From Tsukamurella paurometabola (GTDB lineage Bacteria; Actinomycetota; Actinomycetes; Mycobacteriales; Mycobacteriaceae): DNA of 64,000 nucleotides. Under the pieces are notes generated by a model. That model had not been told where the DNA came from and made no database searches. It saw only the letters and a program-made list of their open reading frames with translations. How positions within the stretch are numbered: position 1 is the first letter of the stretch; each line of letters opens with the position of its first letter. Shown here in pieces: positions 13,324 through 35,883 of this stretch. The stretch is from contig NZ_LR131273.1 in assembly GCF_900631615.1 (NCBI RefSeq), forward strand, positions 434,001-498,000, given 5' to 3'. A program made the position numbers and the translations under genes.

Positions 13324-14189
13324 CACTTCTCGATCCCGCTGAACAGGTCCTTCTCGGGCATCCTGCTGCTCACAGTGGTCTTCGCCAACTCGTACTCCTC
13401 GGTCGGCCACAGTCGCTGCTGCCACTCCATCGGCACCGCGAAGAAGGGGCCGTTGGGGTCGATCTGGGTCGCGTGCGCACGCAGTGCGTCGTCGCGGACG
13501 GGGAAGTACTCGCCGCACTCGACCTGCGTGGTCACGCGCGCCATCATGTCGTTCTTCTCATCCTTCCACCGGGCGAGCCACTCGGTGTAGGGGTTCTCGA
13601 GGCCGTGCTTCTCGAACTCGTCGGCGAAGGCCTGGAACTTGCCGCGGAGGAAGCCGTGGCTGTAGTAGACCTTCGAGATCTGCCAGGGCTCGCCGGCGTC
13701 GGGGAACTGCTCGGGATCGGCCGCGGCCTCGTACGCCGCCATCGAGACGGTGTGGGTCATGATGTGGTCCGGGTGCGGGTAGCCGCCGTTCTCGTCGTAC
13801 GTGATCATCACGTGCGGGCGGAACTCGCGGATGAGCCGCACCAGCGTCTCCGTCGGCACCTCGACCGGCTCCAGCGCGAAGCAGCCCTCCGGGAGCGGGG
13901 GCAACGGGTCGCCCTCGGGCAGGCCCGAGTCGACGAACCCGAGCCAGCGGTGCTCGACACCCAGGATCGCGGCGGCCTTGGCCATCTCCTCACGACGCAC
14001 CTCGGGCAGGCGGTCCTTGACGCCCGCGACGTCCATCGCGGGGTTCAGGATGTCGCCCCGTTCGCCGCCCGTGAACGTCGCGACCAGCACGTCGTTCCCC
14101 TCGGCCGCGTACCGCGCCATCGTGGCGGCGCCCTTGCTCGACTCGTCGTCCGGGTGCGCGTGAACGGCGAGGAGGCGGTATCCGGTCAT
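13323..14189 (-). CDS. mca: Mycothiol S-conjugate amidase
   Basis: Mca cleaves mycothiol S-conjugates of electrophiles and drugs to a mercapturic acid and GlcN-inositol, a detoxification step in the cytoplasm. The zinc site is visible as AHPDDE (His12, Asp15) and PHPDH (His142). The 288-residue length equals the characterised mycobacterial enzyme. The ATG at 14189 was chosen because [16 protein letters not shown] is the family N-terminus. Presence of mca implies that the cell makes mycothiol. The small membrane gene downstream is coupled. Confidence 0.93.
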
Positions 14190-15607: not shown

Positions 15608-16102
15608 ATGACGGACACTCAGGTGACGTGGTTGACCCCCGAGTCCCACGAGCGCCTCAAGAACGAGTTGGACGCGCTGATCGCCAACCGCCCCGTCATC
15701 GCCGCCGAGATCAACGAGCGCCGCGAAGAGGGCGATCTCAAGGAGAACGGCGGTTACCACGCTGCACGCGAGGAGCAGGGCCAGCAGGAGGCGCGCATCC
15801 GCCAGCTGCAGGAACTCCTCAACAACGCCAAGGTCGGCGAGGCCCCCACCCAGTCGGGTGTGGCGCTGCCGGGCTCGGTCGTGAAGGTGTACTACGACGG
15901 TGACGAGAAGGACACCGAGACCTTCCTCATCGCCACACGCGAGGAGGGCGCGCAGGACGGCAACCTCGAGGTGTACTCCCCGAGTTCGCCGCTCGGTGCC
16001 GCGCTCATCGACGCCAAGGTCGGCGAGACGCGCGAGTACACCATCCCGAGCGGTGCCGTCGTCAAGGTCACGCTGGTCAGCGCGGAGCCCTACCACTCGT
16101 AG
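15608..16102 (+). CDS. greA: Transcription elongation factor GreA
   Basis: GreA rescues backtracked RNA polymerase by stimulating transcript cleavage through its secondary channel. The 164-residue protein has the N-terminal coiled coil with the acidic tip [13 protein letters not shown] (Asp43 and Glu46 match the catalytic pair of E. coli GreA) and a C-terminal FKBP-like domain with [14 protein letters not shown]. The start follows from the [10 protein letters not shown] family N-terminus. It has its own promoter and leader and a strong terminator behind it. Confidence 0.95.
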
Positions 16103-23121: not shown

Positions 23122-23195
23122 GCCCCCATAGCCCAATTGGCAGAGGCAGCGGACTTAAAATCCGCACAGTGTCGGTTCGAGTCCGACTGGGGGCA
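23122..23195 (+). tRNA. tRNA-Leu(UAA)
   Basis: The cloverleaf reads with acceptor arms GCCCCCA/TGGGGGC, discriminator A, anticodon stem GCGGA/TCCGC around loop CTTAAAA (anticodon UAA), and T arm GTCGG/CCGAC. The variable loop is only five bases, whereas leucine tRNAs usually have a long one. No CCA is encoded. UUA codons are rare in a genome this rich in GC. The 3' half from the anticodon loop is the attachment site of the integrated element. Confidence 0.9.
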
Positions 23196-23196
23196 C
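23153..23196 (+). repeat. attL of the integrated element (3' half of tRNA-Leu)
   Basis: These 44 bases recur at 35589-35632 with two mismatches (23166-23167). The last 29 bases (23168-23196) are identical in both copies and are the likely crossover region. Integration leaves the tRNA gene intact. Confidence 0.9.
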
Positions 23197-23259
23197 TGCA
23201 TCACCGCAGGCAGGCCAGGTTTTCCCGGCTCACCTAGGTACTACCACCCCGGCCGCGCT

Positions 23260-23275
23260 ACCCCCGTGCTACCCA
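23260..23275 (+). repeat. Left copy of a 16-bp direct repeat, candidate integrase arm site
   Basis: ACCCCCGTGCTACCCA lies 63 bases inside attL and recurs exactly at 35432-35447 near attR, in the same orientation. Position near both ends suits arm-type binding sites of a tyrosine integrase or its directionality factor. Confidence 0.55.
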
Positions 23276-23346
23276 ACATGCGTGAGCCGGGGTGGTATCT
23301 CGCAAAAAGGATCGAGCTTGTCGGTGCCGCATGCGACGATCTGCGC

Positions 23347-24213
23347 ATGGGATTCGACGCACACGTACTCAAAGTGATGATCTCGTCGCCAGGCGACACC
23401 ACAGACGAGGTTCAGGCCGTCAAGGACGCACTGTACGGCTGGAACGGGTCGCGGTCCGAGAACGCCGAAACGGTTCTACTACCCCGCTTCTGGAAGACTG
23501 ACGCGGTGCCAACGCTCAGTAGTTCCGGAGGTCAGAGCGTCATCAATTCGCAACTCCTCGACGATGCAGACATCGTCATTGTGTTGTTTGATTCTCGGCT
23601 CGGCCAAGCCACCGACACCGCAGTATCGGGGACCGCGGAAGAGATTGAGCGGGCGGACGGTGCGGGCAAGCCCGTTCATGTTTGGTTTTCGGACGAGCCG
23701 ATCGACCGACACACGGACCTCAAAGAGTTGGGGCGCCTGAAGAAGTTCCGAGACGAGTTGGAGGACAAGGGGCTGCTCGGCGTCTACGCCGACCTGAACG
23801 ACCTCGCCTACAAGGTGCGCGACGCAGTGGAATCCGACATCTCCAAAATGGGACTCGGAACACCGTCGGTCAAACGAAAAGGTGAACACGCGAAGCCTCG
23901 CGCCAAGATCCGGTCGTGGCGCGAACAGGACGGAATCGACAGACGATCCGGCGCTGCAAAATTTAAAACCAGAAATCGCCTCGTGCTAGAAAATCTATCC
24001 GACACCGTGACCGCTGAGGGACTTACAGTGGACCTCGGCGAGTTGGAATCGTGGGTCAGGCGCCCAACTACGGAGCCTTTCGACCTACCACCCGACTCTC
24101 CCCTTGAATGGGTTGCCCTACTTGTCGGCGACATCCCTCCTCAGTTGACGGTCACCTTCCGCTGGACAGAGGACGGCAACGAACATTCATTCGATCAGCC
24201 CCTCACAATCTAA
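23347..24213 (+). CDS. DUF4062 domain protein, candidate anti-phage cargo
   Basis: A 288-residue protein. Its N-terminal half reads as a DUF4062/TIR-like Rossmann fold: KVMISSPGDT (9-18), DADIVIVLFDSRLG (73-86), TAEEIE (96-101) with a candidate catalytic Glu, and KPVHVWFS (108-115). A basic linker near 175-195 joins a beta-rich C-terminal domain of about 85 residues. DUF4062 proteins often serve as effector or sensor modules in immunity; the activity here is unproven. The gene lies between attL and the integrase, a typical cargo position, is AT-richer than the host, and its stop overlaps the integrase stop by four bases. Confidence 0.75.
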   Translation: MGFDAHVLKVMISSPGDTTDEVQAVKDALYGWNGSRSENAETVLLPRFWKTDAVPTLSSSGGQSVINSQLLDDADIVIVLFDSRLGQATDTAVSGTAEEIERADGAGKPVHVWFSDEPIDRHTDLKELGRLKKFRDELEDKGLLGVYADLNDLAYKVRDAVESDISKMGLGTPSVKRKGEHAKPRAKIRSWREQDGIDRRSGAAKFKTRNRLVLENLSDTVTAEGLTVDLGELESWVRRPTTEPFDLPPDSPLEWVALLVGDIPPQLTVTFRWTEDGNEHSFDQPLTI

Positions 24214-25688
24214 GGGCCGAATAGTTGAATAACCGGGGCGAGGTCCGCTGCCTCTGCCAATTGGGCTATCGAAACCGGCGCGGGCAGGTTGTTGAGCGCG
24301 CCGCCGTCTTCTTCGGGGATCCAGTCGCCGTAGGTGTCCAGGGTCAAGGTGAACGTGCCGTGACCTAGCCACTTGGACACCTGCATGAAGTGCACCCCGG
24401 CCATCAGCTGCATGGTGGCGAAGGTGTGGCGCAGATCGTGCAGACGGACTCCTTGGTGCGCTGGTTCAGCGGGCCGGGTTTTCGTCGCGGGCTTAGCGGG
24501 CTGGCTCGCTGGCAGTCCTACCGCGAGCAGCGCGGGCTTAAGGATCGTGTCGTAGAAGGTGCCCATCGCCAATGGCTGAGACCAGTCCAACGGCACCGCG
24601 TACCGCTCCCCCGCCGCACGATGCCCTCCGCCGTTCTTCCGGCTCGGCCACAACGGCGCAGTCGGCTCGTCAGCGCGAGGATGAACGTTCCGTAGGTAGG
24701 CGTGCATCCGCTCTGCGAGCCAGCCTGGCAGCGGCACCGAGCGGCGAGACTTCCGGCTCTTGGGGGTGCTGGTGGTCCACGCGCCGCCCTTACGCTCCTT
24801 GGTCCGCTGCACCCGGACCGCGCACTGAACCGTCGGTGTGGAGTCGCTGCCAGGGCGGGTAGTGAACAGGAGATCCCCCACCTCTAGACCGGCGTTCTCG
24901 GCGCTGCGGAGACCGCTGTACGCGAGGAAGTCCACCATCAGCGCATACACCGGGTACGCCGGAAGCTCCGCCGACGGCTTACCGTCCAACTCTCCTCCGA
25001 CGGCCGCGCTCAGCTTGGCGACCTGCGCCGCCGTCAGCGGGTGATGCTCGAACTTGTCGTGGTCGCCCGTGGCGCGATTGGTCGCAAAGTCCACCCGGTC
25101 GCATGGGTTCGCCGTCAGCGCGCCTTGCTGGAGTGCGTACCGCATCACTCGACGGAACGTGCCCCACGCGTGCTTCACGGTCGCGGGCTTGATCGGCTCT
25201 CCCCCATTCTGCCGCGACTGCTGCCCAACCAGACCCGCGAGGAAAAGCTCGCAGTCTCGCGGCGTGATGCTCGCGACCGCCCTGCCTCCGAAGTGATCCA
25301 GCGCGTAGCGCCGCAGCACCTTCTCGTAGTCGTCGAGGGTGCGCTGCTTCAGTCGGCCCTGCGCCACCTTCAGCGCCTGACTCTCGATCCACGCCTGGGC
25401 GTAGTGCCCGAACGGTAGATCGCCGGCGACCTTCTGATCCGCGAGCGCGGAGGTGCCGTTGGTGTGGCGGGCGGCGTTCAGCTCGTCACGACGAGCCTCG
25501 GCCAGCTCTCTCGTCGGGAACGTCTCCTGCCGGTTGGCCGTCTTCTTGCGACCGTTCGGCTTCGCGGGGTCCACCGGGATCGGCAGGCCGTAGTCGTCTC
25601 GCTCGGTCTCCTTCCAGATGACGACGTACGCCTTCACGGGCTTGCCGCGATGTCGCGTGGCGGTATCCCGCGTCTTGATCCAAGCCAC
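24210..25688 (-). CDS. int: Tyrosine-family site-specific integrase
   Basis: A 492-residue phage-type integrase. An arm-binding N-terminal domain and a core-binding SAM-like domain (about 90-200) precede the catalytic domain with Arg261, Lys in TPKSRKSRR, His417/Arg420 (HDLRH), His443 (LGH) and nucleophile Tyr453 (LDTYGDW). The GTG start is one base after the serine recombinase stop, so both recombinases form one operon. After residue 470 the tail SIAQLAEAAD is translated from an inverted copy of the 5' half of tRNA-Leu, which is odd; see the repeat at 24243. Confidence 0.93.
   Translation of the reverse strand: MAWIKTRDTATRHRGKPVKAYVVIWKETERDDYGLPIPVDPAKPNGRKKTANRQETFPTRELAEARRDELNAARHTNGTSALADQKVAGDLPFGHYAQAWIESQALKVAQGRLKQRTLDDYEKVLRRYALDHFGGRAVASITPRDCELFLAGLVGQQSRQNGGEPIKPATVKHAWGTFRRVMRYALQQGALTANPCDRVDFATNRATGDHDKFEHHPLTAAQVAKLSAAVGGELDGKPSAELPAYPVYALMVDFLAYSGLRSAENAGLEVGDLLFTTRPGSDSTPTVQCAVRVQRTKERKGGAWTTSTPKSRKSRRSVPLPGWLAERMHAYLRNVHPRADEPTAPLWPSRKNGGGHRAAGERYAVPLDWSQPLAMGTFYDTILKPALLAVGLPASQPAKPATKTRPAEPAHQGVRLHDLRHTFATMQLMAGVHFMQVSKWLGHGTFTLTLDTYGDWIPEEDGGALNNLPAPVSIAQLAEAADLAPVIQLFGP
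24243..24269 (-). repeat. Inverted 27-bp copy of the tRNA-Leu 5' half inside the integrase 3' end
   Basis: These bases are the exact reverse complement of 23128-23154, the tRNA segment from just after the acceptor stem to the anticodon loop. Together with attR, which carries the 3' half, the element holds a whole tRNA-Leu sequence split at GGAC/ACTT and in two orientations. The repeats flank about 1.1 kb that contains the DUF4062 gene. Confidence 0.9.
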
Positions 25689-25689
25689 G

Positions 25690-26319
25690 TCAGGCTGCCT
25701 TTCGTTCGATGCGGGCCAGGGCTCGCCTGACCGAGCTGTAGCTCCATTCGCTGCCGCCCTTGGCGGTGGGGATTCCCTCGTTGGTGAGCGTGCTGGCGAT
25801 GGCCTTAGCGCCGAGGCCCTGCGCGGCGAGCACCTGGATGCGCCGCTGAGCCGAGACGCTGATCAGGCCGGGGTCGCCCTTGCTGCGCTTCTGGTCCAGG
25901 GCTTCGCGGGTACGGGTGCCGATCTTGCGGCGTTCCTCTGCGGCCACAGCCAGGCGCACATCCGCTACGAGACGCTGGCTCGGGTCGCCGCTGTCGGCGC
26001 CCTCGCAGTCCAGGAGTCGCCATCCGTAGTCGTTGGCTCGCTTCATGATCTTCGCGGCGTCCAGCTGGTCGCGGGTGACACGGTCCAGGGCGCGGACGAG
26101 TAGCCCTTGCGCCACTCCGCTTTCCACTGCGGCGACGGCGACCTCACGGCCGAACATCGCGTCGTTCTTCGCGCCGCTGACCACGTCCGTCGTGACCGTG
26201 AGTAGTTCGTGACCGCGAGCCGCACACCACTGTGCGAGTGAATCGCGCTGCGCTTCAAGACCGAGACCGCTGACCCCTTGATTCTGCGTACTGACCCTGA
26301 CGTATCCGATGACTCTCAT
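25690..26319 (-). CDS. Serine recombinase (resolvase/invertase family)
   Basis: A 209-residue protein with an N-terminal resolvase domain. Ser10 in YVRVSTQNQ is the nucleophile, and the Arg cluster ALDRVTRDQ matches the catalytic LDRLSRD loop. The C-terminal part (about 150-205) is a short recombinase-type HTH with EGIPTAKGGSEWSYSSVRRAL. It is far smaller than the large serine integrases, so it is more like a resolvase or invertase. It is the first gene of the operon with int; its own target is not visible. Confidence 0.87.
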   Translation of the reverse strand: MRVIGYVRVSTQNQGVSGLGLEAQRDSLAQWCAARGHELLTVTTDVVSGAKNDAMFGREVAVAAVESGVAQGLLVRALDRVTRDQLDAAKIMKRANDYGWRLLDCEGADSGDPSQRLVADVRLAVAAEERRKIGTRTREALDQKRSKGDPGLISVSAQRRIQVLAAQGLGAKAIASTLTNEGIPTAKGGSEWSYSSVRRALARIERKAA

Positions 26320-26556
26320 CCGTTGTCTCCCTTGCTGTGTGGTTCAGGGGGCGCGGCCCTGCCTGCACCCCATGCACCCCACGTTACCGCACTGTGAGGT
26401 GCATCACTATTGACGAATATCTGTGTGCTGTCGATTGATTCGCGTATCGCTCAACGTCGTTGTAAGCGCTGACGCCACGCGCCCCACACCCGCGGGCCAG
26501 GCCGCCCCGCCAAGCTGGCAGCGGGGCAGCCAGGCCACCGCGATAGCCCCTTGCCG
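26320..26556. other. Intergenic region upstream of the recombinase operon
   Basis: These 237 bases between the recombinase start and the preceding gene's stop hold no convincing gene. A TAACGT box and a GCAC-N6-GTGC inverted repeat lie 40-70 bases before the recombinase start and are candidates for its promoter and operator. Confidence 0.45.
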
Positions 26557-27279
26557 CTACCCGGTGCGGCCCCGGCGCTTGCCGGTGGGCGCGGGCGGCG
26601 GCGTGGTGGCACGGAGCTGCGCGAGGGCCGTCTCCATGTCCATCAGTCCCGTGTCGCGCGGCTTCGGTGTCGCCGGCTCCTCGCTGGGCCGCGGACGTGG
26701 CTCGGGGTCCTCGACCTCGACGTCGATCACGTTGGACGCTGCGAGCTCTTCCGTGATCCACGCGGTGTCGGCGTCCTGGTCCTCGGCCACGCCACGCTCC
26801 CCGCGGGAGGCCGCACGGCTACCGCCCGTGAGCGTTGCCATGCCAGATAGCAACTGCTCGAACGGCTTCGGGTCCACGGAGACCTCCACGGCGGTCTTCG
26901 GGCTGAGGCCAGCGCGGTCGAGCGCGTCCTTGATCGCGGCCAGCTTCACGTTGTCCGGGGCGTCGTCGCTGACAGCGATCTTCAGGAGCTCCTTCGCCAT
27001 GCGGTCGGCGGCCATCTCCAGGCGGACGCGGGCCTTCGCCTTCACCTGCGGCGAGCGGCCTCCGTGCGTGGCGCACACGGTTCCGCCGTTGATAGCGGCT
27101 CTGCGGCACGGGTCGCCGTTGGTGCGATGCGCGGTGCACTGCCGTTCTGGTCGTCGGCCGTCCTGCCATGCGGTGTCGAATACGTCTTCCAGGTCTGCCA
27201 CCTTCGATGGCTCCAGGCCACCCGCGTCCTGATCGTCGACCGCCTCGCGTTCGACATCGTCGTAGTTGTTCTCGGTCAT
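26557..27279 (-). CDS. Phage Cys/HGG-motif protein
   Basis: A 240-residue protein common in actinophage genomes. A probable zinc site is C48, C58, C69 and H72 with the hallmark CATHGG followed by RSPQVKAKARVRL. A helical middle and an acidic, Pro-rich tail follow. Such proteins are sometimes called small terminase subunits, but no large terminase is present and the motif does not prove that role. The second of two ATGs is chosen for ribosome-site spacing (AAGGA). Confidence 0.65.
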   Translation of the reverse strand: MTENNYDDVEREAVDDQDAGGLEPSKVADLEDVFDTAWQDGRRPERQCTAHRTNGDPCRRAAINGGTVCATHGGRSPQVKAKARVRLEMAADRMAKELLKIAVSDDAPDNVKLAAIKDALDRAGLSPKTAVEVSVDPKPFEQLLSGMATLTGGSRAASRGERGVAEDQDADTAWITEELAASNVIDVEVEDPEPRPRPSEEPATPKPRDTGLMDMETALAQLRATTPPPAPTGKRRGRTG

Positions 27280-27484
27280 CATCTGTCCTTTCAACTGAAT
27301 TCTGTTTCTGTGTGGGCTATTCCGAGCTGGTAGCGCCACATACCCCTATTGCGCGCGGGGAAATACCCACCTTTGCTTCTAGGGGGTTATGGGGGTATCT
27401 GGGGGCTTCTGGTGCCAGGTAGCCAGGTGCCCAGATGCCCCCAGAAGCCACCGGTTGCCACAGGTACAAACGCGGGGCATGTGG
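27280..27484. other. Intergenic region with a hairpin at 27399-27444
   Basis: An imperfect stem of about 14 bp (outer arms CTGGGGGC at 27399 and GCCCCCAG at 27437) lies downstream of the primase gene on the minus strand. It may end that transcript or reduce read-through into the HGG-motif gene. No gene is seen in the rest. Confidence 0.5.
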
Positions 27485-29797
27485 CTACCCCCGTGCCTTG
27501 AACGTGTTCGGCGGCAGTCCCCACGTCCATCGGTCGACCTTGCCGCTTTCGCCACGGATCGGCGTCTTGACGATCAGTAGCTTGCTCGCGGCGTTCGCCA
27601 CCGTCTTCTCGCTGCATCCGGTCTCCGCGCTGACCATCCGGCGAACCTCCTTCGCGTCCATCGGCCCACCAGCGAGGAGTTCCTTCAACATTCGTGCGGC
27701 CTCGTCTCTTGACGGTGCCGCCTTACGTGCGTCCGGCTTGGCGCCGTCGGCACCGACCAGCTGATCGGCGTCCTCGTCGAGCACCCCGGCCCATGCCACG
27801 ACCGGCGAGTCGGCGTCGTGAGGACTGGATGTCAGGCGATACCCAAGGGCCGAGGGTGTCCGCGACAAGTTCCCCTTGATTGACGCCAGCCCGTGAGTGG
27901 CATCCGTGTTCTGACGTTCGTCGCTGGGTGGGAGCTTCGCCGCCAACAGCGACGACCGCGCCAGAGCCGTAAACGCGATGGAGCCCCCGCCACGATGCTT
28001 AGCGCTCATGCCGGTGGCCTTGTTCAGGTGCCGCACCAGCACCACCGCTGTGCCGGTCTGCTCGGCTACATCGGCGATCTCCATCAGCGCCTTACGGTTT
28101 GCCGTGTCGCTTCCCGGCCTCACGGCATCCGACATGAACGCGGTGATCGGATCAACAATGACCAGCGCCGCATCGACCTCTTCGATCGCCTTCTTCAAGC
28201 GGTCAACATCGTCCGGGATCAGGAAGGGGACGGGCCGTCCGTTTTCGTCGCGCGGGCGTGCGAGCGTCGCCACCCGCTGCATGTCGGCACCGGCGGCGAG
28301 CAACCGCGGCACGACGGTGTCAGCCAGGTCGTCTTCCACGCCGACCAACACCACCGACGCCGGTTCGTTCAACCCCTTCTCGTTGCGGGTTTCACGCTCA
28401 CCGACCATCGTCGTCGGCCACGGACCGCCGCGAGTGACCAGCGCCGCCCACGTGAGGGTCATCGTCGATTTGCCCACGTCCGGCTCGCCCTCGAACATCG
28501 TCAACTTGCCGCGCGGAATCCAGGGCCACCACAGCCAGTCCACCTTCTTCGGCGTCACATCGGCCAGCGACTCAGTGAAGCGCCGACCGGCATCCCCGGC
28601 CGAGCCGTCGGTGTTCGGCTTCAACACAGCCCGGGACCGGGTGCCGTCCTCGTTGGCGACCCACCCCGACCTCGGCCCCCAGATACCGTCTAGCTCGAAC
28701 GCACCGCCGCTGTAGAAGTCCAACGCGACGTAGTCGGGATCGCCGGCGACGACGCGCAGCGCGCTGGTCAGAGACCGTTGGAACTCGCCGGAATCGTGCC
28801 CTGGGGAGTCACCCACCGCTTCGAATAGCGCTTCCACGGTGATCAGCGCGGTGCGCACGCCGGGTTCGCCCTTCGCGCCGAGCCGGACAAGGCCGAGCGT
28901 CGCGGAGTTCATGGTTGAGTGGCGGTCAGCGCCGTCCTCGATCGCGGCCTCCACCTCGCGGACCTTCGCGGCGACCGTCGCGCTCATCGCGCCGCTACGG
29001 AAGCCGTCGAGTACCGCGCAGCCCTCCGCAGGGGTGCCCTTCGCATGGACGGGAGACGCTACGGGCGCTTCCGGCAGGATGGCTCCGAGTTCCGCGACTT
29101 CGAGCCACCCGGCCTCTGCATTCACCGAGCACCGCGCAGGCACCGGCTCGTCAGGGACCTTCCAGTTGGTCGACCCAGGGCACCGGAGCACGCGGTCGAT
29201 GTTGAACACCGAGTCCACGTGCCCGTCGGGGTTGATCTCTGCGGCGACCTGCCGCACCAGGGCTGCCCATCGCGCACTGATCGTCTTCCAGGCCACCGCT
29301 CCGTCGGTGATGGTCGGCGCATCTCGGACGCGCCATATCGGTTGCAGGCCATGCCCGCTCTCGATCACCACGGCAGGCGCACAGCCGAGCGCCGCGGCGA
29401 GCTTTTCGATCACCTGCTCGCACTCCGCCAGCGACGCCAACCCCTTGTCCTTCACGCCGGGGATTACGACGTCCAGGTCCACGTACAGGGCGAGCCCCCG
29501 CGAGACGTCCGCCTCGCCACCCTTGCGTGAGATGCCAGGCTCCAGGGTCAGCGGGTTGGGCGAGAACCACACGTTGACGTCGTCGGGCGGCGACCACCCT
29601 TGTCCCAGGAGCTCGACACGCATCGTCCGTCCTCGAAAGGGCGTCGTGTGGTCTGGCTCCTGGGTGCAGACGCTGACCACGGCGTCGTCCTCGTGCCCGA
29701 GCACGAGCAGCACTTCGTAGAGACCGACAGAGTTGTCGCCGCATCTGTATGACGGCAACGGAATACCGTCCAGATCGGAGTTGCTTGTATGCTTCAA
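27485..29797 (-). CDS. Primase-polymerase / RepA-type ATPase fusion, element replication protein
   Basis: A 770-residue protein with three parts. The N-terminal archaeo-eukaryotic primase domain has catalytic D107 and D109 (LYVDLDV), SGHG (147-150) and RVLRCPGSTN (202-211). The RepA-like AAA ATPase has Walker A GEPDVGKST (437-445) and Walker B ALVIVDP (544-550), with an RHLNK sensor later. A winged-helix segment lies near the C-terminus (CSEKTVANAASKLL). It should initiate replication of the excised element. The start is a TTG after GAAGG; an ATG at 29623 would cut the primase domain. Confidence 0.83.
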   Translation of the reverse strand: MKHTSNSDLDGIPLPSYRCGDNSVGLYEVLLVLGHEDDAVVSVCTQEPDHTTPFRGRTMRVELLGQGWSPPDDVNVWFSPNPLTLEPGISRKGGEADVSRGLALYVDLDVVIPGVKDKGLASLAECEQVIEKLAAALGCAPAVVIESGHGLQPIWRVRDAPTITDGAVAWKTISARWAALVRQVAAEINPDGHVDSVFNIDRVLRCPGSTNWKVPDEPVPARCSVNAEAGWLEVAELGAILPEAPVASPVHAKGTPAEGCAVLDGFRSGAMSATVAAKVREVEAAIEDGADRHSTMNSATLGLVRLGAKGEPGVRTALITVEALFEAVGDSPGHDSGEFQRSLTSALRVVAGDPDYVALDFYSGGAFELDGIWGPRSGWVANEDGTRSRAVLKPNTDGSAGDAGRRFTESLADVTPKKVDWLWWPWIPRGKLTMFEGEPDVGKSTMTLTWAALVTRGGPWPTTMVGERETRNEKGLNEPASVVLVGVEDDLADTVVPRLLAAGADMQRVATLARPRDENGRPVPFLIPDDVDRLKKAIEEVDAALVIVDPITAFMSDAVRPGSDTANRKALMEIADVAEQTGTAVVLVRHLNKATGMSAKHRGGGSIAFTALARSSLLAAKLPPSDERQNTDATHGLASIKGNLSRTPSALGYRLTSSPHDADSPVVAWAGVLDEDADQLVGADGAKPDARKAAPSRDEAARMLKELLAGGPMDAKEVRRMVSAETGCSEKTVANAASKLLIVKTPIRGESGKVDRWTWGLPPNTFKARG

Positions 29798-29853
29798 GAT
29801 GCAGCCTTCAGGTTGTGGTATCCGTTGCCCTACAACGGATATGGAGGGTCAGC

Positions 29854-30129
29854 TCAGCTGACCCGAGAGCTCTTGCTCGCCGTGTGGAAATCGGTCGGGA
29901 CGGCCTCGAGGACAGCGTTCTCGGGGTCGTCCGTTCGTTTCGAGCAGACGCACAGCGCCTCCAGGCCGACGCCCAGCGTTGAGATGCACACCGTGCGCCC
30001 GCTACTGCCAGCCGCACCGTTGCATCCGACCCGGACGACGCCAGGCCGCAGCGCGGCATCAACCTTGACGGCCGCGTACACCGCCCATCCGGCCAGCCAG
30101 GCCAGGGCGGCGATCTCGACGGCGCTCAT
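29854..30129 (-). CDS. Small protein with one hydrophobic helix, unknown function
   Basis: A 91-residue protein starting MSAVEIAALAWLAGWAVYAAVKV, one likely membrane helix, then a short Cys-containing region (VGCNG, TVCIS, LCVCSK). The ATG overlaps the previous stop (TGATG), so it is coupled to the gene before it. No family is recognised. Confidence 0.5.
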   Translation of the reverse strand: MSAVEIAALAWLAGWAVYAAVKVDAALRPGVVRVGCNGAAGSSGRTVCISTLGVGLEALCVCSKRTDDPENAVLEAVPTDFHTASKSSRVS

Positions 30130-30941
30130 CACCAGAACCCCTGATCAGGCCAACCGACGGACGCGGGCCAGGTGTCGGATCGGCCGGCGATCCAGTCCGT
30201 GCGAACTGGCACGCCTTGGTCGGCCATAGCCTGCGCCTCGCTGTAGACCGACCAGTGGCATGACTGGCAGCTCGGCAACAGGTAGGTCGTCCCGCCCGAA
30301 TCGACGATCATGAAGTCGTCCAGTCCGCGCGACCCGCACCGCGTCACCCGACAGAACGCGCACTCGCGGACCGTGACGTGCTTCGCGATGTACTGGCAGA
30401 GGCGGTAGGCGGTCCAGTATCCGGGGACGACCAGGAACTCATAGTTGCCCTCGTGACCGCCCGCGAGAATCACCGTCGGTACCGGGCTACCGCCGTGCTC
30501 TGCGACCGCGACCGCAGTGGGATAGGTCTCGGCGTCGCGGACTACCTTTTCGCGCTCGCCGCGGTCGGCGGCGTTACGAAGCGTGACCCTGCGCTTCTCC
30601 TCCTCGGTCGGTACGTATCCGCCGTGCATCGGCATCCGTTCCCGCCCGCAGTTCGTCTCGAGGTAGCCCCACGGCATCCCTTCGGAGTGAAGCTCGCCAG
30701 CACGGGCACGCTCGACCGCCCTCGCGACCGACCGGAGGTAGCGCGTAGCGCCCTGCGAGTACCGAACGTCACGGCTCTTGTCCCTCAGCGGGCTCTCGCT
30801 GTGCTCCATGACCGTCAGGTACTGGTCGCACGTGGAGTTCGAGGTCGCGCGCAATGACGGGTCGGTGTACTCACGGTCGGACAGCGCCGGGAACTGCTCA
30901 AACTCGGGCTTCCAGCCCGGATCGGGGATCGGCCCGCTCAT
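30129..30941 (-). CDS. Element protein with a C-terminal Cys-rich motif, unknown function
   Basis: A 270-residue soluble protein. The C-terminal third holds CAFCRVTRCG and a later SCQSCHW, which together could bind one zinc. An MHGGY stretch lies in the middle. Its start ATG overlaps the excisionase stop (ATGA), so it belongs to the early operon that runs from the excisionase to the primase. The function cannot be told. Confidence 0.6.
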   Translation of the reverse strand: MSGPIPDPGWKPEFEQFPALSDREYTDPSLRATSNSTCDQYLTVMEHSESPLRDKSRDVRYSQGATRYLRSVARAVERARAGELHSEGMPWGYLETNCGRERMPMHGGYVPTEEEKRRVTLRNAADRGEREKVVRDAETYPTAVAVAEHGGSPVPTVILAGGHEGNYEFLVVPGYWTAYRLCQYIAKHVTVRECAFCRVTRCGSRGLDDFMIVDSGGTTYLLPSCQSCHWSVYSEAQAMADQGVPVRTDWIAGRSDTWPASVGWPDQGFW

Positions 30942-31216
30942 GCGGCACCCCCGCGCTGAACGGCGGGGCGAGCCAGGCTCTTGACCCACAGGTACAGGTC
31001 GCGCTCGCTGAAGTAGTTGCAGCCGCTGATCTTGAACACCGGGAGCTCGCGCCCCTCGATCGCGGACCTCATGCGGGTCTTCGTCACCGGGACGTTGAAC
31101 ACGTCGTTGATGAACTCGACCGCGCCGTCGCGTCCGCGGATCGTCGGCATCTCGTTCAGGGTGATGGGGCCGACCGTCTCGGTCGGACGAGCAGGGGTGG
31201 CGGTCGCCTTACTCAT
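30938..31216 (-). CDS. Probable excisionase / MerR-like HTH protein
   Basis: A 92-residue protein with a winged HTH of the excisionase type: VPVTKTRMRSAIEGRELPVFKISG followed by NYFSERDLYLWVKSL. Small proteins like this bend DNA at att sites and reverse integration, and may also repress. It is the first gene of the leftward early operon. Upstream is an AT-rich region with repeated TTGCGC boxes. The ATG at 31216 follows GAGAGGT. Confidence 0.72.
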   Translation of the reverse strand: MSKATATPARPTETVGPITLNEMPTIRGRDGAVEFINDVFNVPVTKTRMRSAIEGRELPVFKISGCNYFSERDLYLWVKSLARPAVQRGGAA

Positions 31217-31551
31217 GTCAGTAACCTCTCGAATTGGATATTGCGCAGCGTTTGTTTTGCCATTCGCGTCTTGAAACAAATGGACTGGCGTACTGCCGTT
31301 GCCCCATTGTTTGCGTTGCGCTGGCCCACTATAAGCACAGCTGCAGCCCGGCGCGCAACCACCAATTTGCGCAGAGATAGTCCAGCGCAACAGGTTTCAT
31401 CCATGATTGCTTTGTCCGATTTATTTCGACCACACTAGGGGGTAATTGCCGCCCGCCAATAGCCCCGCTGCCCGATTTTCTTTCTGTGTGCGTGCAGGGG
31501 TGCGCGCCGGAGAAGTCAACCGACGTGTGCGCTAGGTGTAACGTCGAGCCT
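31217..31551. promoter_or_regulatory. AT-rich divergent control region with TTGCGC boxes
   Basis: The 335 bases separate the leftward early operon from the rightward zinc-ribbon gene. TTGCGCAG is at 31241 and 31367, GTTGCGCTGG at 31315 and as its reverse complement at 31382, and a further GCGCAA at 31353. It is markedly AT-richer than the flanks. It is a good candidate for the main genetic switch or for a replication origin with iterons. A TAACGT box lies seven bases ahead of 31552. Confidence 0.55.
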
Positions 31552-32034
31552 GTGGGTGCCGAAAAAATATTCTCCTGCCCGGTCTGCCGCGGCCCGATCG
31601 AGCCGCCAGGGGTCCGGACCCACGTCGTGGTGTACCGGTCGCGCAGGCGGCTCGACGTGATGTCGAGACGCTGGGAGCTGGTGTGTCGATCGTGTGCGAC
31701 ATTGGGCAGCCTCGAGGGCTCAGGTGAGATTGGGATCGAGTCGCCGAGCGGGCGCACCGTGGCGACGCCCGTGTCACCCGGAGCGCTCACGCTTCACGAG
31801 TGCGTGACATGTGCGCGGCAGTTTCTGGCCGGCGAAGACTCGTTCCTCAAGGTCGCGACCTGTTCATCGACGTGTCGTTGGTCCTACTACCGCAACCGAG
31901 ACCGGCCCACGCCCTCCGCTGCGAGTTGTTGTCGCGGTTGCGGGTCGCCTATGGAAGGTCGATCAGACCGGCGATACTGCTCATCGGCGTGCCGACAACG
32001 GGACTACCGCTCACGAAAGAACGCACGCAAGTGA
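31552..32034 (+). CDS. Multi-zinc-ribbon protein, unknown function
   Basis: A 160-residue Cys-rich protein with paired Cys in CPVC (9-12), CRSC, CVTC, CSSTC, CCRGC and CSSAC. The last pair sits in RRYCSSACRQRDYRSRKN, the closing motif of a small actinobacterial zinc-finger type. The GTG at 31552 is chosen since TAACGT lies seven bases upstream, giving a leaderless start; a GTG at 31486 is possible. It is likely a nucleic-acid-binding regulator. Confidence 0.6.
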   Translation: MGAEKIFSCPVCRGPIEPPGVRTHVVVYRSRRRLDVMSRRWELVCRSCATLGSLEGSGEIGIESPSGRTVATPVSPGALTLHECVTCARQFLAGEDSFLKVATCSSTCRWSYYRNRDRPTPSAASCCRGCGSPMEGRSDRRYCSSACRQRDYRSRKNARK

Positions 32035-32087
32035 CGCCCTCACCGAAGCGACTGTGCCGCCGTGGAGTACGGGCCCAAATTGTGGAG

Positions 32088-32351
32088 CTACGGTAGCTCC
32101 CTGGTTTCGAGAGGAAGCCCGTCAAGTAACGCTCCCGGCGATGTGTCAAGGCCGTGCGCGAGCTTGAGGATGGAGTCGATGCGGCTACTCCGCTGCCCGC
32201 GCTCGGCGCGGGCGTAGTAGCTCCAGTGCACCCCCGCCTTCGCGGCGGCGGCTTCCTGCGAGAGTCCGAGTTCCTCGCGTCGAGCGCGCAACCGTCGGCC
32301 GAACTCCACCACGGCGGGCGTGGGCGGCGTCGGTTCGGCAGCTGGACTCAT
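32088..32351 (-). CDS. Cro/CI-type (XRE) repressor
   Basis: An 87-residue DNA-binding protein with a clear HTH (LRARREELGLSQEAAAAKAGVHWSYYARAERG). It is small, with no peptidase or dimer domain of the classic CI type. It is divergent from the lipoprotein gene and probably maintains the dormant state. The ATG at 32351 is used; an in-frame GTG at 32363 would add four residues. Confidence 0.78.
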   Translation of the reverse strand: MSPAAEPTPPTPAVVEFGRRLRARREELGLSQEAAAAKAGVHWSYYARAERGQRSSRIDSILKLAHGLDTSPGALLDGLPLETRELP

Positions 32352-32363
32352 AGCGGCATCCAC

Positions 32364-32487
32364 TACAGCGGGTTGCGGCCAGACGGACCAGAGCCAATCG
32401 GTCCACGGCCAAACGGTTTAGTATTCGATTCCAGCCGGATTGTCCGGCAAGTCGGGCATGATCTGCCTGGTCTAGAAGGAGGCACAG
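32364..32487. promoter_or_regulatory. Divergent promoter region of the repressor and lipoprotein genes
   Basis: TAGTAT (32419-32424) is a -10 box for the lipoprotein and lies within TTTAGTATTCG, which also reads TACTAA on the other strand, so two promoters overlap. A GGACC-N10-GGTCC inverted repeat near 32384-32404 is a candidate operator. A full AAGGAGG ribosome site precedes the lipoprotein. Confidence 0.5.
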
Positions 32488-32991
32488 ATGCATGGATGGA
32501 AGCGGGCCGGGGTCGGCTTGGCAGTGGGATCGATGGTCCTGACAGGATGCGGCGGGGGCGAGAAGGCGACGACCGGCAGCACGTCGACGACGACTGAGGC
32601 GACTGCTACGGCGGCCAAGGTAAGCGCGCAGACGTTCAGCGGGTCGCAGGCGATTTTGGTCGCGCTGCAAGCAGGAGGCGTCAACTGCGTTCAGGACATG
32701 ATTGCAGCCCCTGGCGCTCAGTCTCAGCGGTGCAATGTGGATGGCGACGCGATGAAGAGTCTCTCCATCTACTACTCGGCGGACCCCTCCGTCTTCCAGA
32801 AGCGGCTGTACCTGGAGACGTCTATGGTCACGACTAACAGTGCCGCACTGGCCCTATACCTGGTTCAGGGGTCGAACTGGTTCGTCTCGTGCGACGGACT
32901 GGTCCAAGCTAAGCAACAGGCAGCGTGCAGCGCGGTCTCTGGCGTGCTCGGCGGCGAGGTGCAGTTCTTCAAGTCGGCGTCGTTCAAGTAG
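32488..32991 (+). CDS. Element-encoded lipoprotein, candidate superinfection-exclusion or conversion protein
   Basis: A 167-residue protein with a lipoprotein signal peptide (lipobox VLTGC, lipidated Cys21), a Thr/Ser-rich spacer, and a folded domain of about 120 residues with four Cys (NCVQ, RCNVD, SCDG, ACSAV) that could form disulfides. It has the strongest ribosome site in the element (AAGGAGG, 32476) and is expressed away from the repressor, like a lysogenic gene. No homologue is recognised; the exclusion role is inferred. Confidence 0.7.
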   Translation: MHGWKRAGVGLAVGSMVLTGCGGGEKATTGSTSTTTEATATAAKVSAQTFSGSQAILVALQAGGVNCVQDMIAAPGAQSQRCNVDGDAMKSLSIYYSADPSVFQKRLYLETSMVTTNSAALALYLVQGSNWFVSCDGLVQAKQQAACSAVSGVLGGEVQFFKSASFK

Positions 32992-33004
32992 CTACGTCGA
33001 ACAG

Positions 33005-33059
33005 CCGAAACCCCGCCGAGGCGATGATTGCGATCGAGTCGTCCTCGGCGGGGGTTCGG
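33005..33059 (+). terminator. Hairpin terminator behind the lipoprotein gene
   Basis: Arms CCGAAACCCCGCCGAGG (33005) and its near complement at 33043-33059 form a stem of about 17 bp with one mismatch and a 21-base loop. Confidence 0.6.
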
Positions 33060-33360
33060 TGTTTGCGGGAAGAGGGCCGAGCCTGGCTCTCCTCCCGCAC
33101 CGCGTCGGACAAGTCGACGACGCGCGGCAGGGACAAGTCGACCTGCCGTCGGTGAGCGGGGAACTCACCGAGTCTGTGGCCGGGCGGTGCCCGGCTCGCT
33201 GTGTAGTTGTGGTGGTGGGGCGGCTGCAACGTGGCCGCTCAACCGCCTATCGCGGGCCACAGGCTGTCGCGGTGGCTCCCTGCGCGGGGTGGGTGGCCCA
33301 CAGGGCGTGCCCGGTGCTGCGTCAACGGCGTAGGTCCGATCTGGGGCAGATCGCCGGCGA
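33060..33360. other. Gene-poor stretch between lipoprotein and late genes
   Basis: No convincing gene is seen on either strand. GGACAAGTCGAC occurs twice (33107-33118 and 33131-33142), 24 bases apart. This may be a protein-binding site or a remnant of deleted late genes. Confidence 0.4.
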
Positions 33361-33747
33361 TCATCGCCGCACCTTCGTCCCTGCCGTGGCCTTACGGCTC
33401 GCGGGGTTCGGCCGCGCGGTGACCGTCAGCTTCTTCTGCGCCTTGTCCAGCGAGGGCGTGACGTCGAGCCGGCGATCAGGACGGCCGTGGTAACCGACGA
33501 TGCCCTTCGCGACCACTCCACGACCGGCGGGCGAACGGAACTCAGCACCGATCTTCACGCCCTTGTAGTCGCCGCCCTGACCGACGGTCAGGTGCTTCTC
33601 AAAGCTGCCCTGGACGTAGGCGTTGCTCACCGACTTGGACACCTTCTTGCCCGCGTTCGCCGTCGCCGCCTTCGTGGAGCTGACGACCTTCGAGCCCGCC
33701 CCAGCGAACCGGCCCAGCCGGTCCCTGCGCTGGACGCGGCGGCTCAT
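33361..33747 (-). CDS. Basic late protein with RDRLGRFAG motif
   Basis: A 128-residue strongly basic protein. The N-terminal RDRLGRFAGAGS resembles the RDxxGRFA motif at the start of many phage head-associated proteins. The rest is Lys/Ala/Val-rich without a recognised fold. It is third in the capsid operon and its ATG overlaps the previous stop. It may package with DNA or bind the capsid; that is speculation. Confidence 0.6.
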   Translation of the reverse strand: MSRRVQRRDRLGRFAGAGSKVVSSTKAATANAGKKVSKSVSNAYVQGSFEKHLTVGQGGDYKGVKIGAEFRSPAGRGVVAKGIVGYHGRPDRRLDVTPSLDKAQKKLTVTARPNPASRKATAGTKVRR

Positions 33748-34004
33748 TGCCGACCGCCCTGCAGACGCTCGCGGCGTGCGCGCCGTTCGGCCAGCTCGTC
33801 AGTGAGGGCGCGCAAGTCCTCGGACTCAGGCATGGGTGGCGTCGTCCCGCGATACATCCCACCCTGCGAGGGCGGAGCGTCCGCGAGCTCGGGCGGCGTG
33901 AGGCCCGGCCCCCAGCTGAATTCGCTCGGCTCCAGCTCGGGCAGGTCGTGTTCGTGACTGCCAGCGAGCGGCCTACCGGTCGTCCTCGGTCGCGACGCGT
34001 GCAT
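33744..34004 (-). CDS. Small late protein, unknown function
   Basis: An 86-residue protein with a Pro/Glu-rich middle and a charged C-terminal helix (ALTDELAERRARRERLQ). The ATG overlaps the capsid stop (TGATG). It could be a head-completion or scaffold-like peptide, but nothing in the sequence proves it. Confidence 0.5.
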   Translation of the reverse strand: MHASRPRTTGRPLAGSHEHDLPELEPSEFSWGPGLTPPELADAPPSQGGMYRGTTPPMPESEDLRALTDELAERRARRERLQGGRQ

Positions 34005-35179
34005 CAGCGCCACGACCATTCGGGCTCGGAGTACGGACCGGACGACTTGACCTGGACGACGCACGCCGCGCCCCGGTACCGGACGCCCGTCCCGTACCCG
34101 CGAGCGAAGAACGAATCCTGCAGCGGGTACCTCTGGTCCCGGCCCGGAATCATTCGCAGGCCTTGGTAATTGGGGTTATTGTGCTGCCGGAAGGCGACCG
34201 GGTTCATCGAGCTATTCGGTCCACCGGTCGCGACAACGGCGACGTACCCGACGGGCAGGTAGTGGCTCTCGATCAGCCATGCCGGGCCGTAACTGCCGCT
34301 GACCTCCAGGCCTCCGAATTCTGCTGGGGCGATCTGGCCCACGACGTTCTCGGTGGTGAGGTACGCCGGGGCGGACGACGACGGGATGAAGTCGTACTTG
34401 CTCTCGATGCCGTTCGTGGCGATGCCTGCACGGAAGGTCTGGATGATCTCGCCGTCCGCGGGGTTCGCCAGGATGATCAGCCGAGAATTGCCGTCGACGC
34501 CGAAGCCCTTGGAGCGGACCTGGTCGATTGCATCCTTCAGGTCGCCGGGGTCGAGATCGGTGTTCCCGCTCACGAGGTAGTGACTGGTCTCGGGTGGGAA
34601 CACCTGACCGGCGTACTCGGGCGGGATCATTCCGTCGGTGCCGTTGTAGAGGCCGTAAACCGGAGTGCCGAACTCGTTGGCCCCCTGCTCGGGGCTGAAC
34701 AGCCGCCGGAGGATCGCGCCGGTCGTCTGACGATTGTCGGCCTCCATCACGCGGTTGACGACGCTGCGGACCTGCTCAGCGTTCGCATCGCGCAAGAACT
34801 TCCAGGTGAACCGCGACGCGATGTCGTAGTCCTCGTAGTCATACCCGAGCAGAAGCGCGTTCGGCTCTGCGCGGAGACCGGTCGGCTCGCCGAATTCCGA
34901 CGCGACCTCGAAATGGTCGCCGCCGAGACTCTGCGGAATGGCGTCGCCCACGTTCACCGTCGAGTACGAGATGAGCGAAGCCAGCGCGGAGCGCTTCTGA
35001 TTCCACATTGCCATCGCGGCCTGCGCGTCGGACCAGAGGGACGAAAGATCGACGCCGTCGGCCGTTTGGTGCACGAGCACATCGCCCGCGGTCGAATAGC
35101 CGGTGGCTGCGTCACCGCCGAAGGCGAACAGTTCGTCGCGAAGATCGCGGAGATCGGGCGGGGTCAGGGTGGCGTTCAT
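34004..35179 (-). CDS. Phage major capsid protein, HK97 fold
   Basis: A 391-residue capsid subunit with an N-arm, an E-loop region and P/A domains suggested by stretches such as LISYSTVNVGDAIPQSL and LEVSGSYGPAWLIESHYLP, followed by FRQHNNPNYQGLRMI. It looks like the capsid type of small actinophages. No prohead protease or fused delta domain is visible. It is the first gene of the late operon, with a GGAGA ribosome site. In a 12-kb element without portal or tail genes it suggests capsid formation or capsid hijacking. Confidence 0.78.
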   Translation of the reverse strand: MNATLTPPDLRDLRDELFAFGGDAATGYSTAGDVLVHQTADGVDLSSLWSDAQAAMAMWNQKRSALASLISYSTVNVGDAIPQSLGGDHFEVASEFGEPTGLRAEPNALLLGYDYEDYDIASRFTWKFLRDANAEQVRSVVNRVMEADNRQTTGAILRRLFSPEQGANEFGTPVYGLYNGTDGMIPPEYAGQVFPPETSHYLVSGNTDLDPGDLKDAIDQVRSKGFGVDGNSRLIILANPADGEIIQTFRAGIATNGIESKYDFIPSSSAPAYLTTENVVGQIAPAEFGGLEVSGSYGPAWLIESHYLPVGYVAVVATGGPNSSMNPVAFRQHNNPNYQGLRMIPGRDQRYPLQDSFFARGYGTGVRYRGAACVVQVKSSGPYSEPEWSWR

Positions 35180-35588
35180 GGATTTCTCCGTTCGGTAGAA
35201 GGGACTGGATTCGTCGGGGCTCTTTCTCGACGACGCCGGTCTCTGACCAAGCGAAGAATTACGCGGTTCGCGGTGAACCTGAACTGCGACAGCTGCGACC
35301 TCGGGTCGCGGGCGCTGCGGGTACTGCCCGGTTGCGGCGTGCTGGCTGCTGCCACCGTACGCCCACCGTCCGACCAGCGGCCAGCGCACGCAGGGGAGCC
35401 AGGCGAATCGCTGAACGGACGGTGCCATGCCACCCCCGTGCTACCCACCGGCGCCAGCTTGGCGGTGCGCCAGCGGTAGCCGCTGGTGGTCAAACGGTGG
35501 TCAGTTATGGGCGCTCACCTGCGAGTCTGCGGGATCGACAATGGCGTCATGCCTGGTGGCGTATCTCGGAGAACAGCACACCGGGAGT
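35180..35588. other. Gene-free right end of the element
   Basis: The late promoter must lie at the left of this stretch. It contains the second copy of the 16-bp direct repeat (35432-35447). No convincing gene is seen. Confidence 0.5.
35432..35447 (+). repeat. Right copy of the 16-bp direct repeat, candidate integrase arm site
   Basis: Identical to 23260-23275 and in the same orientation, about 140 bases inside attR. Confidence 0.55.
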
Positions 35589-35632
35589 ACTTAAAATCCG
35601 CCGAGTGTCGGTTCGAGTCCGACTGGGGGCAC
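35589..35632 (+). repeat. attR of the integrated element
   Basis: A second copy of the tRNA-Leu 3' half, matching attL over 44 bases with two mismatches and a 29-base perfect core at 35604-35632. The tRNA 5' half is absent here, so this copy is not a functional tRNA. Confidence 0.9.
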
Positions 35633-35883
35633 CTGTCGCAGCGCGCGTACCCGACCGGCCGCGCAATGTCCGGAAAGATGCCGATCAGGCAGGGCTCCTG
35701 GCGCTGCTCTTCGCATTCATCCCGTTGATCGGCATGATCGCCTGGCTGCTGTCGCCGATCGGACTACTGCTCTCCGGAGTCGGCTTGGCGAAGTCGCCGA
35801 GGGGGGCTAGCGATCGAGGAATGGTGCTGTCGGGCGTCGCTCTCCTCATCTGCTTCGGCTGGTTGATACTCCTGGCCATCTGA
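35633..35883 (+). pseudogene. 5'-truncated small membrane protein (DUF4190-like C-terminus)
   Basis: A frame open from attR encodes two hydrophobic helices (LLALLFAFIPLIGMIAWLLS and MVLSGVALLICFGWLILLAI) with the LLLSGVGLAKSPRG loop of small DUF4190-type proteins. No ATG, GTG or TTG precedes the first helix on the chromosomal side. It is probably the remains of a gene cut by this or an earlier insertion at the tRNA. Confidence 0.5.

What the first reader, a model, noticed from the sequence alone, without database searches (positions are those of the whole stretch)
23153..35632. Capsid-carrying phage satellite of about 12.4 kb with perfect att core
The element has integration, excision, replication and repression genes and an HK97-type capsid gene, yet no portal, large terminase, protease, tail or lysis genes. 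phiRv1 and phiRv2 of M. tuberculosis and capsid-forming satellites share this pattern but differ in gene set: here there is no protease, and both a tyrosine and a small serine recombinase are present. It may be a distinct satellite family that builds or remodels capsids with a helper phage.
Basis: partly seen in the sequence, partly recalled or inferred. Interest (0 to 1): 0.8.

Follow-up and report, generated by a model that had tools for sequence, protein, structure and literature searches.

The report
Phage satellite carrying one capsid gene
A 12.4 kb mobile element in a Tsukamurella chromosome carries a phage shell gene but almost nothing else needed to build a virus, and relatives with the same odd gene set sit in other actinobacteria, so it looks like a separate family of virus parasites rather than a broken virus.

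Summary
The 12.4 kb element sits in tRNA-Leu(TAA) between 44-nt repeats (42 of 44 identical, not perfect). A copy in T. conjunctivitidis differs by 3 bases in 12,486 while the flanks differ by 10-12%: recent transfer. It belongs to a family: 22 of 29 loci compared carry capsid gene, small serine recombinase and tyrosine integrase, 20 of them also a small-terminase-like gene, in fixed order. Large-terminase and portal profiles hit 0 of the 29; of 80 IMG/VR relatives of the capsid gene, 70 have terminase, portal or tail hits nearby. Satellite capsid proteins form one clade (22 of 23) apart from 79 phage ones. A small protein behind the capsid gene occurs in 21 of 29 loci and 0 of 81 phage loci. 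Ten elements with mapped ends span 10.2-13.4 kb. This argues against a deletion derivative. Likely mode, untested: own shell and packaging specificity; helper's portal, motor, tail, lysis. Mycobacterial "integrase + capsid" candidate PICIs are published, so this is a new variant of a known kind; it fails the capsid-forming PICI definition.

The parts
23122..23196 (+). tRNA-Leu (TAA), integration target, kept whole by attL
   Evidence: ARAGORN
23153..23196 (+). attL core, 44 nt
   Evidence: direct repeat, 42 of 44 identical to attR
23252..23275 (+). probable arm-type integrase site (repeat near attL)
   Evidence: 24-nt direct repeat with 35424-35447, 88%; short repeats near both ends also in L065, L066, L069; function inferred
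23278..24213 (+). DUF4062 protein, candidate anti-phage cargo (start may be 23347)
   Evidence: Pfam PF13271 E 3.6e-5, just under its cut-off; PADLOC PDC-S60 E 7e-18 over residues 30-189
24210..25688 (-). tyrosine integrase
   Evidence: phrog_1 E 1e-48, PF22022, PF00589
24243..24269 (-). exact 27-nt copy of the 5' half of the target tRNA-Leu, in frame inside the integrase gene
   Evidence: (I2)
25690..26319 (-). small serine recombinase (resolvase/invertase type), beside the integrase in the 22 family loci that have it, the integrase and the capsid gene
   Evidence: PF00239 E 2e-27; phrog_125 DNA invertase over 1-207
26557..27282 (-). HGGxSTG protein, probable small terminase subunit
   Evidence: weak phrog_10899 and phrog_2538 TerS; relatives near phage record ends, though not next to the large terminase; Foldseek top rows NV1 and PaP3 TerS but E 0.17 or worse; VIA-align inconclusive
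27485..29797 (-). primase/AAA_25 ATPase replication protein
   Evidence: phrog_2478 E 6e-32, PF13481 E 2e-30
29854..30132 (-). small conserved protein of unknown role
   Evidence: homologues found only in the Tsukamurella loci among the 29 compared
30129..30941 (-). conserved Cys-containing protein of unknown role
30938..31216 (-). small protein, excisionase-like by size and position
   Evidence: only a weak phrog_27219 match, E 0.05; profile found in 21 of 29 loci
31486..32034 (+). Cys-rich, weakly HNH-like protein
   Evidence: phrog_1271 E 2e-4
32088..32363 (-). XRE repressor
   Evidence: PF01381 E 5e-13
32488..32991 (+). probable lipoprotein, cargo
   Evidence: lipobox-like N-terminus read by eye; no family match
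33361..33747 (-). small basic protein downstream of the capsid gene
   Evidence: 8 of 29 satellite loci, 0 of 81 phage loci; no family match
33744..34013 (-). satellite-specific protein directly behind the capsid gene (SEF.WGPG motif), candidate capsid-size or assembly factor
   Evidence: 21 of 29 satellite loci, 0 of 81 phage loci; no hit in 50,697 phage records at E 1
34004..35179 (-). HK97-type major capsid protein
   Evidence: phrog_3990 E 8e-106; phage capsid genes at up to 45% identity; solved chains 8saj, 8giu
35424..35447 (+). probable arm-type integrase site (repeat near attR)
   Evidence: D18; function inferred
35589..35632 (+). attR core, 44 nt

Best explanation
A tRNA-integrating phage satellite of a distinct actinobacterial family that supplies its own shell protein and its own packaging specificity, and takes the rest from a helper phage. 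Steps: the tyrosine integrase recombines the element into or out of the anticodon-loop part of tRNA-Leu (att sites and empty sites shown; the reaction inferred); the repressor holds it silent until a helper arrives (inferred); the primase/ATPase replicates it and the small serine recombinase resolves multimers or tailors the circle (inferred); the capsid protein, with the small protein encoded right behind it, forms a shell fitted to about 12 kb (inferred from family-wide size 10.2-13.4 kb); the HGG protein acts as small terminase and steers the helper's large terminase onto satellite DNA (weakly supported); portal, connectors, protease or scaffold if needed, tail and lysis come from the helper (inferred from absence).
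For: Integration anatomy and recent transfer; empty or nearly empty sites in 8 of 15 other genus genomes; collinear family in Tsukamurella, Mycobacterium, Mycolicibacterium, Rhodococcus and an unnamed genus of another family; ends mapped at tRNA-Leu(TAA), Leu(CAA), Arg, Met and Gly with sizes 10.2-13.4 kb; no large terminase or portal found; one satellite clade of capsid proteins, 22 of 23; satellite-only protein behind the capsid gene; TerS-like HGG; defence-type cargo in both elements checked; a prophage with terminase, portal, capsid and tail genes in the same genome that could in principle serve as helper.
Against: No excision, induction, particle or helper was observed; the one exact attP pattern found nothing in IMG/VR and no phage or plasmid record matches the element in near mode. 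The resident prophage has another capsid family (phrog_1650). A single capsid protein without portal, scaffold or protease would have to dock onto foreign helper parts. The TerS call rests on weak scores; its phage relatives are not next to the large terminase in the records looked at and VIA-align was inconclusive. The HGG profile also hits 2 of 81 phage loci. Some relatives are capsid fragments or lack the other genes (L016, L068, L070, L174, L179), and one capsid protein (L177) falls among the phage rows.
Confidence: 0.6

Rival explanations
1. A satellite whose capsid protein does not build its own shell but co-assembles with or poisons the helper's capsid, resizing it or blocking phage production as a form of defence.
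For: Only the shell protein is kept, without portal, protease or scaffold family found; the element carries candidate defence cargo; the capsid protein is related to those of Gordonia and Mycobacterium phages.
Against: The capsid sequence is conserved over its length across 12 satellite proteins, with many invariant columns, in line with a working shell; family size is narrow, as expected if packaging sets it.
Confidence: 0.2
2. Remnant of a full prophage that lost most structural genes (deletion derivative).
For: Capsid protein is phage-derived; some relatives are clearly decayed (L070, L179).
Against: Same gene set in 22 of 29 loci, satellite clade of capsid proteins, near-identical copy in a second species, no full prophage with the integrase-recombinase-HGG set found (of the 80 IMG/VR loci kept only L088 has it, and it lacks terminase and portal hits).
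Confidence: 0.05
3. An integrative island in which the capsid gene now serves a non-viral role (for example a nanocompartment or a secreted particle).
For: The capsid gene is kept without other head genes across a deep clade.
Against: Keeps integrase, replication protein, TerS-like protein and repressor and moves between species; no family match to a cargo enzyme among the scanned proteins.
Confidence: 0.06

Closest known systems
Mycobacterium candidate PICIs (integrase + capsid gene; PMC10654092, including phiRv1 and phiRv2)
   Same: Defined there simply as regions with integration functions and a major capsid gene; three of the four drawn have tyrosine integrases and sit at tRNA genes; some have helicase or terminase genes (passages, section 9 read).
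   Different: Its main text has no occurrence of resolvase, asiaticum, iranicum or Tsukamurella, and 'serine recombinase' only in a reference title on phiRv1. That phiRv1 and phiRv2 carry a protease is recalled. No sequence comparison with phiRv1 or phiRv2 was made here; the mycobacterial relatives found here may well be among that survey's regions (its data sets were not seen).
Capsid-forming PICIs (cf-PICIs)
   Same: Encode their own major capsid protein and depend on a helper for tails; [quoted passage not shown]
   Different: cf-PICIs are said to encode protease, portal, connectors, both terminase subunits and HNH as well; here portal, protease and large terminase were sought and not found. 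The same genome holds two other elements with large terminase, portal and capsid genes that look closer to them.
Streptomyces satellites MulchRoom and MiniFlayer (PMC10690885)
   Same: Actinobacterial satellites with own capsid genes (passages).
   Different: They carry small and large terminase, portal, scaffold and adapter, and no obvious replicase (passages).
Gordonia phage LilyPad (Terapinvirus) and Mycobacterium phage MontyDev and its kin
   Same: Homologous capsid protein at 42-45% identity.
   Different: Full structural modules; apart from the capsid protein the satellite proteins have no match among the 37 phage proteins compared beyond one of 16 residues at E 0.06.

Membership tests
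Phage satellite (generic) | Integrated element with phage-type genes but no complete virion module | tested here: met
Phage satellite (generic) | Mobilised in particles by a helper phage | not testable with these tools
   No reads or experiments; horizontal transfer itself is supported
Capsid-forming PICI | Own major capsid protein | tested here: met
Capsid-forming PICI | Portal protein | tested here: not met
   none; portal profiles 0 of 29 family loci; Pfam SPP1 portal elsewhere only
Capsid-forming PICI | Head maturation protease | tested here: not met
   none among the window proteins scanned
Capsid-forming PICI | Large terminase subunit | tested here: not met
Capsid-forming PICI | Small terminase subunit | tested here: inconclusive
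   HGG protein: weak PHROGs, Foldseek top rows but E 0.17 or worse, VIA-align unclear
Mycobacterial candidate PICI (integrase + capsid definition) | Integration machinery plus major capsid gene in one region | tested here: met
   the host is Tsukamurella, which that main text does not mention
Canonical PICI (SaPI type) | Capsid-remodelling genes acting on helper capsids | not testable with these tools
   33744-34013 is a candidate by position only
phiRv1/phiRv2-like elements | Homologous capsid and protease genes | not tested
   No direct sequence comparison was made; gene content recalled
Defective prophage | Relatives are full prophages sharing the same lysogeny and capsid genes | tested here: not met

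The most novel reading that the evidence does not exclude
A separate satellite architecture, spread over mycolic-acid bacteria and beyond, that encodes only the shell: one phage-derived capsid protein, captured once long ago, plus a satellite-only protein behind it that sets shell size for a genome of about 12 kb, with portal, motor and tail all borrowed. Its small serine recombinase is a fixed part of the element while the neighbouring tyrosine integrase is swapped between tRNA targets (recombinase 95-96% identical beside integrases at 37-67% in three relatives).
Probability: 0.35. Interest if true: 0.78.

Novelty: new variant of a known kind. Interest (0 to 1): 0.62.

Why it matters
Known satellites either remodel helper capsids or bring a whole head-and-packaging module. 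A stable family that brings only the shell protein would sit between the two and would show that a foreign shell can be docked onto a helper's portal, motor and tail. It names a compact, testable candidate for capsid-size control (33744-34013) and a conserved recombinase pair whose division of labour is unknown. It also shows that one Tsukamurella genome can hold three capsid-bearing elements of satellite type beside one prophage with tail genes.

Tried and rejected

Limits: profiles were built from the loci they count, so satellite counts are partly by construction; the phage counts are not. The 29 loci are 28 chromosomal ones and one IMG/VR contig (L088); the window and L059 are two copies of one element. 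Seven of the 29 lack the set capsid gene, serine recombinase and integrase (L177, L014, L016, L174, L179, L068, L070); L014 and L177 are cut by contig ends. The 80 IMG/VR loci are the best of 124. The tree left out one listed satellite row (L088) and two phage rows by length; L016, L068, L070 and L179 were not entered. L177 falls among the phage rows on a long branch. Two weak hits of the 33744-34013 profile (L010, L012, E 3e-4) are in the count of 21.
Full report
WHAT IS THERE. The window lies in a 4.70 Mb single-contig genome of the genus Tsukamurella (genus inferred because genomes placed in the same genus match the named T. conjunctivitidis and Tsukamurella sp. PLM1 records). A tRNA-Leu (TAA) at 23122-23196 is followed by 12.4 kb bounded by a second copy of the last 44 bases of the tRNA: 23153-23196 and 35589-35632, 42 of 44 identical. 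The core is therefore not perfect. The two mismatches help: attR has the variant found in the empty sites of three relatives (L028, L031, L032), attL has another, and both genomes that carry the element show the same pair, consistent with a crossover within the shared anticodon-loop stretch at about 23153-23165. One caution: the attL variant is also the native one in another genus genome (L036).

EMPTY SITES AND RECENT MOVEMENT. All 16 genus genomes searched have the upstream flank. In 8 of the 15 others the right flank follows within the short stretch held after the tRNA, so the site is empty or nearly so. The element, 23148-35633, matches Tsukamurella conjunctivitidis HKU72 with 3 mismatches in 12,486 bases, while the two flanks are 88-90% identical. 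This is strong evidence of recent horizontal movement and gives the ends independently of the repeat. In that genome a second element of about 10.5 kb stands between the tRNA and this one; it has its own integrase, a different capsid gene (phrog_1650), a scaffold- or decoration-type protein, a head maturation protease and an HNH gene.

GENES. From left: a DUF4062 protein (PADLOC PDC-S60, E 7e-18), tyrosine integrase, small serine recombinase, HGGxSTG protein, primase/AAA ATPase, two conserved unknown proteins, an excisionase-like small protein, a Cys-rich weakly HNH-like protein, an XRE repressor, a probable lipoprotein, two small proteins, and the major capsid protein. The capsid protein matches phrog_3990 (E 8e-106) and 153 of 50,697 phage records by tblastn, all under 60% identity; a profile of 12 satellite capsid proteins finds two solved capsid chains, 8saj and 8giu. 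No large terminase, portal, protease, tail or lysis family turned up among the proteins scanned.

A FAMILY, NOT A WRECK. The capsid protein was traced in named genomes (11 loci), in the genus (7 of 16 genomes), and in a sample of the order (14 of 397 genomes, 5 of 85 genera). Of 29 loci compared by profile, 22 have capsid gene, serine recombinase and integrase, and 20 of these also HGG, in all 20 in the order HGG, serine recombinase, integrase on one strand (two of the 22 are copies of this one element). Named hosts include Tsukamurella, Mycobacterium asiaticum, Mycolicibacterium iranicum and Rhodococcus. Large-terminase and portal profiles, from phages and from two other satellites of this genome, hit 0 of the 29 loci; the phage profiles ring in 42 and 51 of 82 phage loci, most of them their own sources. 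In 17 genomes Pfam large-terminase and SPP1-portal matches all lie elsewhere. Of 80 IMG/VR loci with a related capsid gene (the best of 124), 70 have a terminase, portal or tail hit and only one (L088) has the satellite genes. In a tree of 102 capsid proteins, 22 of 23 satellite rows form one clade (99/100) apart from 79 phage rows; the exception, L177, sits on a long branch.

ENDS AND SIZES. Nine relatives have clear direct repeats at a tRNA: tRNA-Leu(TAA) in L009, L168 and L172 (the last at 87% identity), Leu(CAA) in L065, Arg in L069 and L176, Met in L066, Gly in L169 and L171 (anticodons where given; 21 loci were given, one of them this element's second copy; in the other 11 no such pair was found in the DNA held). 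With the window that makes ten elements of 10.2 to 13.4 kb. The Rhodococcus loci L010 and L012 carry the tRNA-Leu core beside the capsid gene too. The narrow size suggests a packaging limit (inference).

THE SATELLITE-ONLY PROTEIN. A protein of very roughly 55-105 residues (starts uncertain) with a conserved SEF.WGPG..PP motif is encoded directly behind the capsid gene in 20 of the 21 loci where its profile rings (21 of 29 in all, two of them weakly), but in 0 of 81 phage loci in which the capsid profile itself rings 81 of 81. It has no match in 50,697 phage records at E 1. Position and distribution make it the best candidate for a shell-size or assembly factor. This is inference; nothing shows its function.

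THE HGG PROTEIN. Weak matches to small terminase families. Its relatives in 23 phage records are partial (39% coverage at most); 8 of the 23 lie within 0.5 kb of a record end and 13 more within 4 kb (several are duplicate records of one phage). Small terminases often sit near such ends (recalled), but in the records opened the large terminase is some 2-6 kb away or not in the stretch seen, so this is weak support. The structure model is of middling confidence (mean pLDDT 68.8). Foldseek's first four rows of 350,542 chains are NV1 and PaP3 small terminases, yet E is 0.17 or worse, and VIA-align leaves it open. I call it a probable small terminase.

TWO RECOMBINASES. In three Tsukamurella relatives the serine recombinase is 95-96% identical to the window's while the adjacent integrase is 37-67%, and the tRNA target differs. 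Nucleotide identity falls at the integrase start in all three, with a partial rise again in two. So the integrase appears to be exchanged while the serine recombinase stays. In T. conjunctivitidis a second element (L008) shares capsid and primase at 91-94% but has a different integrase and recombinase. Modules clearly mix. The recombinase most likely resolves multimers or edits the circle; this is inference.

CARGO AND NEIGHBOURS. The M. asiaticum relative carries GmrSD-type and Mrr-type restriction genes next to its ends, the window a DUF4062 gene: candidate defence cargo in both elements checked. The same chromosome holds a prophage at about 51-89 kb with small and large terminase, portal, capsid, tape measure and minor tail genes (its ends and integrase were not mapped) and two short elements with integrase, large terminase, portal and capsid genes and no tail gene noticed, at about 0.13 and 3.15 Mb. 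The prophage could be a helper, but its capsid family differs from the satellite's.

HOW IT COMPARES. The mSystems 2023 survey (PMC10654092) already lists mycobacterial regions with integrase and capsid gene as candidate PICIs (section 9 read). So the general kind is known, and the mycobacterial relatives here may be in its data sets, which I did not see. Its main text does not mention Tsukamurella, resolvase, or the two species named above. The full-text searches that bear on a description of this family were made; none of the listings showed one, but listings were capped and most subscription papers and all supplements were out of reach. By the definition quoted in PMC10690885 (passages) it is not a capsid-forming PICI. 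I rate it a new variant of a known kind.

WHAT IS SHOWN AND WHAT IS INFERRED. Shown by sequence: integration site, ends, movement between species, gene set, family, no large terminase or portal by the searches named, capsid clade. Inferred: helper dependence, own small shell, TerS role, role of the small protein and of the serine recombinase.

Noticed in passing
window 24243-24269 (in integrase gene 24210-25688): Exact 27-nt, in-frame, inverted copy of bases 7-33 of the target tRNA-Leu near the 3' end of the integrase gene. The integrase of L065 has another linker there with similar flanking residues. Seen in 1 of 10 elements with mapped tRNA and in the T. conjunctivitidis copy; unexplained.
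   Followed up: partly
G002:C289:48.3-58.9 kb (L059, L060): In T. conjunctivitidis a second capsid-carrying element (integrase, phrog_1650 capsid, protease, HNH) is integrated in tandem at the same tRNA-Leu.
   Followed up: partly
L061 (G000:C1:3.147-3.158 Mb) and L063 (G000:C1:0.129-0.139 Mb): Two short elements near tRNA-Asn and tRNA-Leu(TAG) in the window's genome with integrase, large terminase, portal and capsid gene, capsid-forming-PICI-like; ends not mapped.
   Followed up: partly
L185, L186 (G000:C1:about 51-89 kb): Prophage with terminases, portal, capsid, tape measure and tail genes in the same genome, a possible helper; ends not mapped.
   Followed up: partly
L066 near 15844-15887; L169 near 4462-4517: Third copies of the att core, suggesting tandem or remnant elements in two relatives.
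   Followed up: no
L008, L009, L067, L168 against window, L010, L012, L065, L066, L069: The capsid gene runs with the integrase in some relatives and against it in others, so the capsid module has flipped in the family.
   Followed up: no
L009:2788-4689, 11419-13526: Restriction-type cargo (GmrSD, Mrr) next to both ends of the M. asiaticum relative.
   Followed up: partly
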